This document shows positions 12,618 through 14,472 of a DNA stretch of 64,000 nt, piece after piece. The stretch's first letter is position 1. Every line of letters starts with the position of its first letter. The translations under genes and the position numbers were made by a program. Source of the DNA: Gammaproteobacteria bacterium (GTDB taxonomy: Bacteria; Pseudomonadota; Gammaproteobacteria; UBA5861). The stretch is from positions 1 through 64,000 of the forward strand of contig JAKSCV010000002.1 of NCBI GenBank assembly GCA_022360445.1. The letters are read 5' to 3'. The notes beneath the pieces are model-generated. The model was not told where the DNA came from, searched no databases, and was given only the letters and a program-made list of their open reading frames with translations.

Positions 12618-14444
12618 TCAGTTTTTTAATCGGTGCAGTTCATCATAAATAGTAGCCGCCAATTGTTTGCTGATTCCTGGCACGGTGGCCAACTCTTCCC
12701 TCCCTGCTTTTTCGATTTGCTGAAAGCCACCGAAGTGTGCCAATAGCTTTTGACGCCGCTTAGCACCGACACCAGGAATTTGCTCCAAGGGTGACTGGTT
12801 ACGGGCTTTGGCCCGACGCGCCCGGTGCCCGGTAATGGCAAATCGGTGGGCTTCGTCACGAATTTGCTGAATCAAATGCAGCGCTTCGGAATCACTTTGC
12901 AAGCGCATTTCTTTTTTGCCCCGATCAAAAATCAGCAGTTCCTCTCCAGCTTTTCTCTCTGGCCCTTTGGCAACACCGACGAGTTCAACTGCCTCAATTT
13001 GTAGATCATCCATCACGCCTTGTGCAACATTCAATTGACCCTTACCTCCATCAATTAAAATGATATCCGGCAATGGTGCACTTTCCTTTAACTGTCTAAG
13101 GTAACGCCGTTCTAGTGCTTGCTGCATGGCAGCATAATCATCGCCTTTGGTAATACCTTCAATGTTGAAGCGGCGGTATTCCTGTTTCGCTGGCCCTTCG
13201 AGGTTAAACACAACACATGAGGCTACGGTTCCTTCTCCCATGGTGTGACTGATATCAAAGCATTCCAGGCGCTCAGGTATTTCTTCTTTTTTAAGTAGCC
13301 GCCTTAAAGCATCGAGACGTTGTGCAATACCGGAACGGGAAGACAATCGCGTTTCCAGGCTCATCCGGGCATTTTCTTCAGCCATCTCAAGCCAGCGTGT
13401 GCGCTCACCCCGCGTTCGGTGCTTGATTGTGACCGGCACGGAAGCTCGCTTGGATAGTACTTCTTCAATCAGTGATTTTTCCAGGAGTGGCTCTGAGGTC
13501 AAAATTTCCTCAGGGACTTCATTGTGTGCGTAAAATTGAGTGACAAAGGCATAAAGTACTTCGCTGCTTATTACGTTTTCAGGCACTTTAGGGTAAAACG
13601 CTTTCCCACCTAAGTTGATGCCGTTTCTTATCAGGAAAACGTGTACACAAGCCTGACCACCGCCAAGGTAAGACGCAATCACATCGGTATTACCTTTATG
13701 ACCGCTGACGTACTGTTTTTCAGTCACCCGCTTGAGTGTAGCAATCTGGTCACGCACTTTGGCTGCTTTTTCGTAGTCCAGGCTTTCAGCGGCCTCGTTC
13801 ATTTCATCTACCAACTGGGAAATAACGCCTTGGTTTTTCCCTGTTAACAGAGAGACACTCATGTCAATGTCGTGCTGATAGTCCTGCTCATTGATTAAGC
13901 CAACACAAGGACCTGTGCAGCGTTTTATTTGATATTGTAGGCAAGGACGGGAACGGTTCCGAAAGTAGGCATCTTCACACTGCCTGACTTGAAAAACTTT
14001 TTGTATGAATTGCAATGTTTTTCTAACGGAACCGGCACTGGGGTAAGGGCCAAAATATTTTAGCCCTCGCTTTTTAGCGCCACGGTGATAGAAAAAACGG
14101 GGAAAATGAGGGTGGTCTGACAGACCAATATAGGGGTAACTTTTATCGTCCCGAAGTGAAACGTTGTAACGGGGGCGGTGCTTTTTTATGAGTGTTTGTT
14201 CCAGCAACAGCGCTTCTATCTCGCTGTCTGTCACAATGACGTCAATGCCAGCAACATTGGAAACCAGTACCCGGGTTTTAACCGTATCCGATTCTCTGTA
14301 AAAGTAGCTGTTCAGCCGGTTCCGTAAATTTTTGGCCTTGCCCACATAGATGACATCACCCGATGCATTTTTCATCTAATAGACGCCCGGGCGGTTGGCA
14401 ACGGTTTTTAGAAAGTCTTTAGGATTAAATGCGGCGGACACCAT
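12618..14444 (-). CDS. uvrC: Excinuclease ABC subunit UvrC, interrupted by an in-frame amber codon
   Basis: From the ATG at 14444, which has a strong AGGAGG, the frame reads 22 codons ending NRPGVY, then TAG (14376-14378), then ATG and 584 further codons. The remainder has all UvrC parts: the second half of the GIY-YIG domain (IYVGKAKNLRNRL), the UVR motif near residue 210, the RNase H-like endonuclease domain (CFDISHTMGE) and C-terminal HhH repeats. Full length would be about 608 residues. The stop falls just after GVY, the GIY half of the nuclease motif. Initiation at the adjacent ATG would give a protein lacking that half. It may be a mutation (CAG to TAG), a sequencing error or suppressed. 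Confidence 0.85.
14376..14378 (-). other. In-frame TAG within the uvrC coding sequence
   Basis: Codon 23 counted from the ATG at 14444. It is followed at once by an ATG, so termination and re-initiation are possible. Homologues have Gln or Arg here; a Gln CAG would need one C-to-T change. Confidence 0.85.
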
Positions 14445-14472
14445 TACCCTCCTGGGTCATCCGATTCTGCCC

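What the first reader, a model, noticed from the sequence alone, without database searches (positions are those of the whole stretch)
14373..14444. Amber codon between GVY and YVG halves of the UvrC nuclease motif
The reading frame with the good Shine-Dalgarno gives NRPGVY, TAG, then ATG and an otherwise perfect UvrC. Re-initiation at the touching ATG would give a UvrC without the GIY half, lacking one catalytic Tyr of the 3' incision site but with the 5' incision domain intact. If real, it means split translation, stop-codon suppression or a repair-deficient (mutator-like) strain. The rest of the gene shows no decay.
Basis: partly seen in the sequence, partly recalled or inferred. Interest (0 to 1): 0.75.

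Follow-up and report, generated by a model that had tools for sequence, protein, structure and literature searches.

The report
Lone nonsense codon in ordinary uvrC
The DNA-repair gene uvrC in this draft bacterial genome carries one stop codon after its 22nd codon, a single-letter difference from its nearest relative, and every test points to an ordinary recent point mutation or base-call error rather than a special way of translating the gene.

Summary
On the minus strand, uvrC reads ATG (14444) ... NRPGVY, TAG (14378-14376), ATG (14375-14373) ..., then is open to a TGA at 12620-12618. The nearest held relative (same genus, a Halothiobacillaceae metagenome-assembled genome; UvrC 96% identical) has CAG (Gln) there. 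So the stop is a single C-to-T difference from it. None of 107 further uvrC loci has a stop at this codon.

I found no support for recoding or suppression. RF1 (prfA) is intact, TAG ends 11 of 48 long ORFs in the window, and no tRNA with a CUA anticodon was found. Three other genes with premature stops in a 236-ortholog audit all carry TGA. The "touching" ATG is not a new start: it encodes the Met of GVYxM, present in 105 of 107 loci. dN/dS over the rest of uvrC is 0.038 (rank 36 of 216), so the change is recent or is not in the cells at all.

Verdict: an isolated nonsense substitution or a consensus base error in a 110-contig draft. If real, the cells probably lack normal 3' incision, since no second GIY-YIG gene was found, though a photolyase-family gene is intact. 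Only reads or re-sequencing can separate error from mutation. Low interest.

The parts
12618..14444 (-). uvrC, 609 codons including the terminal TGA, interrupted at codon 23
   Evidence: TIGR00194 648.8 bits; 96% identical to the congener's intact UvrC
14376..14378 (-). In-frame TAG (codon 23) where the congener has CAG (Gln)
   Evidence: Q or R in 99 of 107 further loci
14379..14444 (-). 5' stub of 22 codons with the GVY half of the GIY-YIG motif
   Evidence: 21 of 22 residues match the congener
12618..14375 (-). Remaining 585-codon ORF starting at the ATG that touches the TAG; holds YVG, the UvrB-binding region, the RNase H-like and HhH domains
   Evidence: PDB sequence matches for the C-terminal half and HhH domain
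14447..14453 (-). Shine-Dalgarno-like AGGAGGG ahead of ATG 14444 / GTG 14441, identical in the congener

Best explanation
A single C-to-T change (CAG to TAG, Gln23 to amber; G to A on the + strand at 14378) in an otherwise normal uvrC. It is either a recent nonsense mutation in the sequenced cells or strain, or a wrong consensus base in a fragmented draft assembly. There is no programmed recoding. If it is real, most ribosomes stop after 22 codons. Low natural amber read-through, and perhaps re-initiation at the adjacent ATG, would give at best small amounts of full-length UvrC or a 585-residue form without the first strand and first Tyr of the GIY-YIG nuclease. The cell would then be largely deficient in 3' incision. 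Shown here: the substitution relative to the congener, its isolation, the intact remainder and the absence of a found suppressor. Inferred: the direction of change, the recency and the translational consequence.
For: The congener has CAG at this codon with identical flanks and Shine-Dalgarno region. Gln (46) and Arg (53) dominate the position in 107 further loci, none with a stop. In a profile survey of 370 genomes of the class, of about 155 listed best matches only two carry a stop inside uvrC: this one and one TAA in another genome. dN/dS of the rest of uvrC against the congener is 0.038, rank 36 of 216 ortholog pairs with median 0.091. The window's residues fit the family about as well as the congener's at the differing sites. 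RF1 is intact, no CUA tRNA was found and TAG is used as a normal stop. The audit of 236 orthologs found three other genes with true internal stops, all TGA, so there is no TAG enrichment.
Against: No reads are available, so a real allele and an error cannot be separated. Only one congener is held, so the direction of the change rests on it and on more distant relatives (43% Gln at the site). Re-initiation at the abutting ATG cannot be excluded from sequence.
Confidence: 0.92

Rival explanations
1. Purely an artefact: wrong consensus base, or a minority strain's base, in the draft. The organism has an intact uvrC. This is one of the two branches of the best explanation.
For: Draft of 110 contigs; nearest record is a metagenome assembly; the gene is otherwise strongly conserved; another well-conserved gene, a cyclase at C71:24024-25343, also has one isolated stop.
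Against: No direct evidence of error. The reverse audit of the congener found few comparable internal stops, and real recent pseudogenes are normal in bacteria.
Confidence: 0.45
2. Split translation: a 22-codon leader, then re-initiation at the touching ATG, gives a functional UvrC without the GIY half as the normal product.
For: TAG and ATG abut; the downstream frame is fully intact.
Against: The ATG is the ancestral Met of GVYxM (105 of 107 loci). No other relative shows this arrangement. No Shine-Dalgarno lies ahead of the ATG beyond a weak GGG. The local RNA fold is ordinary. The product would lose the first conserved Tyr, and no Cho-like substitute was found.
Confidence: 0.04
3. Stop-codon suppression or TAG reassignment restores a full-length protein.
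For: The frame is open on both sides of a single TAG.
Against: No CUA tRNA among 32 distinct tRNAs. The pattern search gave 5 hits, none a tRNA, and an analogous pattern recognises 31 of those 32 known tRNAs. RF1 intact. TAG ends 11 of 48 long ORFs in the window. Other internal stops are TGA.
Confidence: 0.02

Closest known systems
Bacterial UvrC, dual-incision nuclease of nucleotide excision repair (TIGR00194)
   Same: Whole sequence, domain order and both halves of the GIY-YIG motif; gene order kept in the congener
   Different: One in-frame TAG between the GVY Tyr and the following Met
Ordinary nonsense alleles / recent pseudogenes
   Same: Single substitution from a Gln codon, the rest of the gene without decay, relatives intact
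   Different: Whether the base is real in the cells is not established
Amber codons read as amino acids (suppressor tRNA or reassignment)
   Same: An in-frame TAG inside a conserved gene
   Different: No CUA tRNA found, RF1 present, TAG used as a regular stop

Membership tests
UvrC (TIGR00194) | Full-length profile match above the curated cut-off | tested here: met
   648.8 bits against 285.45, read through the stop
UvrC (TIGR00194) | Complete GIY-YIG domain in one uninterrupted frame | tested here: not met
   TAG at codon 23, just after GVY
UvrC (TIGR00194) | RNase H-like nuclease and HhH domains | tested here: met
   Matches to solved UvrC C-terminal domains at E 2.6e-43 and 6e-40; FDISH, IDGGKGQ and DEAHRFA blocks aligned
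Recent nonsense allele / pseudogene | Intact ortholog in the nearest relative, one substitution away | tested here: met
   CAG in the congener
Recent nonsense allele / pseudogene | The stop is present in the cells, not only in the consensus | not testable with these tools
   No reads or independent isolate held
Amber suppression / TAG reassignment | tRNA with CUA anticodon | tested here: not met
   the assembly and the tRNA list may be incomplete
Amber suppression / TAG reassignment | TAG avoided as terminator, or RF1 lost | tested here: not met
   11 of 48 long ORFs end in TAG; prfA intact at 546 bits
Programmed re-initiation | Arrangement conserved in relatives | tested here: not met
   No relative examined has a stop at this codon

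The most novel reading that the evidence does not exclude
The amber is real and fixed, and the organism makes a UvrC lacking the GIY half by re-initiation at the abutting Met codon: a repair enzyme that keeps 5' incision but has lost 3' incision.
Probability: 0.03. Interest if true: 0.5.

Novelty: already known. Interest (0 to 1): 0.1.

Why it matters
It matters mainly as a caution: a striking stop inside a catalytic motif can come from one transition in a Gln codon of a draft genome. If the base is real, the strain would be a natural near-null for excision repair and likely to be UV sensitive, but nonsense alleles of repair genes are not unusual.

Tried and rejected
Recoding or suppression (tRNA survey, CUA pattern search with a sensitivity control, RF1, stop-codon usage): rejected. 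A second UvrC/Cho-like nuclease as backup: only one GIY-YIG locus was found in the genome. General genome decay: 236 orthologs compared gave four genes with true internal stops, uvrC included. Long-standing relaxation of uvrC: rejected, dN/dS 0.038. RNA structure at the stop: ordinary. The T. maritima UvrC structure papers are not held. A literature search on re-initiation and read-through gave nothing specific to this case.

Full report
OBSERVATION. The minus strand carries AGGAGGGTAATGGTGTCC..., encoding MVSAAFNPKDFLKTVANRPGVY, then TAG at 14378-14376, then ATG at 14375 and an open frame of 585 codons to TGA at 12620-12618. Read through the stop, it is a full UvrC, with strong matches to solved C-terminal UvrC domains. 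The GIY-YIG profile spans the TAG. The upstream 22 codons are coding: 21 of 22 residues match the congener, and G20 and Y22 of the motif are invariant in 107 further loci.

RELATIVES. A genome of the same genus (G001, record Halothiobacillaceae bacterium UBA5861) has a 96% identical UvrC with CAG at codon 23. Its flanks and Shine-Dalgarno region are nearly identical. Across 107 further loci the codon is Arg (53), Gln (46) or another sense codon, never a stop. In a survey of 370 genomes of the class, the listed best matches (about 155) include one other uvrC with a stop (TAA, genome G290) besides this one.

IS THE GENE DECAYING? No. Against the congener there are 139 synonymous and 24 other codon differences, one of which is the stop (dN 0.018, dS 0.486, ratio 0.038). 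That is rank 36 of 216 ortholog pairs, whose median is 0.091. Where the two differ, the window's residues fit the family about as well as the congener's. If the stop is in the cells, it is recent (inference).

IS IT READ THROUGH? RF1 is intact. TAG ends 11 of 48 long ORFs in the window. Among 32 distinct tRNAs none has a CUA anticodon. A pattern for CUA tRNAs gave five hits, fewer than its reversed control, and none is a tRNA. An analogous pattern recognises 31 of the 32 known tRNAs. The tRNA list lacks some expected species, so it may be incomplete.

IS THE STOP CODON SPECIAL GENOME-WIDE? I compared about 864 kb of this genome with about 723 kb of the congener. Of 236 orthologs, most flagged stops lie upstream of the apparent start or at the far C-terminus. 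Besides uvrC, true internal stops occur in an acetyltransferase-like gene (TGA, C85:180105-180599), a kinase-like gene that also looks otherwise damaged (TGA, C85:158856-159482) and a cyclase-like gene (TGA, C71:24024-25343) (these gene names are my reading of the sequences, not profile matches). There is no TAG enrichment. Isolated stops occur at a level of one to two percent of genes, whether as real mutations or as errors.

CONSEQUENCE IF REAL. Published work reviewed in PMC9426483 assigns 3' incision to the GIY-YIG site and 5' incision to the RNase H-like site. It reports that changing the second Tyr abolishes the activity of the GIY-YIG domain in T. maritima, and that H. [quoted passage not shown] A product starting at Met24 would keep the second Tyr but lose the first Tyr and the strand that bears it. 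That it would be inactive for 3' incision is inference. E. coli has a second 3' nuclease, Cho, whose distribution in gammaproteobacteria is patchy (PMC1564403). Here only one GIY-YIG locus was found. uvrA is intact and a photolyase-family gene is intact. uvrB is cut by a contig end in this draft but whole in the congener.

VERDICT. A lone nonsense substitution or consensus error; which of the two cannot be told without reads. The touching ATG is a coincidence of the conserved GVYxM motif.

Noticed in passing
G000:C74:1-1068 (L163): uvrB is present only from profile position 305 on, starting exactly at the first base of a contig. It is whole in the congener (L252), so an assembly break is the likely cause.
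   Followed up: partly
G000:C71:24024-25343 (within L244): A cyclase-like gene, otherwise strongly conserved (dN/dS 0.047), carries a single in-frame TGA at residue 367 where the congener has Gly.
   Followed up: partly
G000:C85:180105-180599 and C85:158856-159482: An acetyltransferase-like gene with Trp to TGA, and a kinase-like gene with a TGA and a divergent N-terminal part: probable pseudogenes.
   Followed up: no
Genome G290, C20:65493-67241: Another member of the class with a stop (TAA) inside its uvrC match.
   Followed up: no
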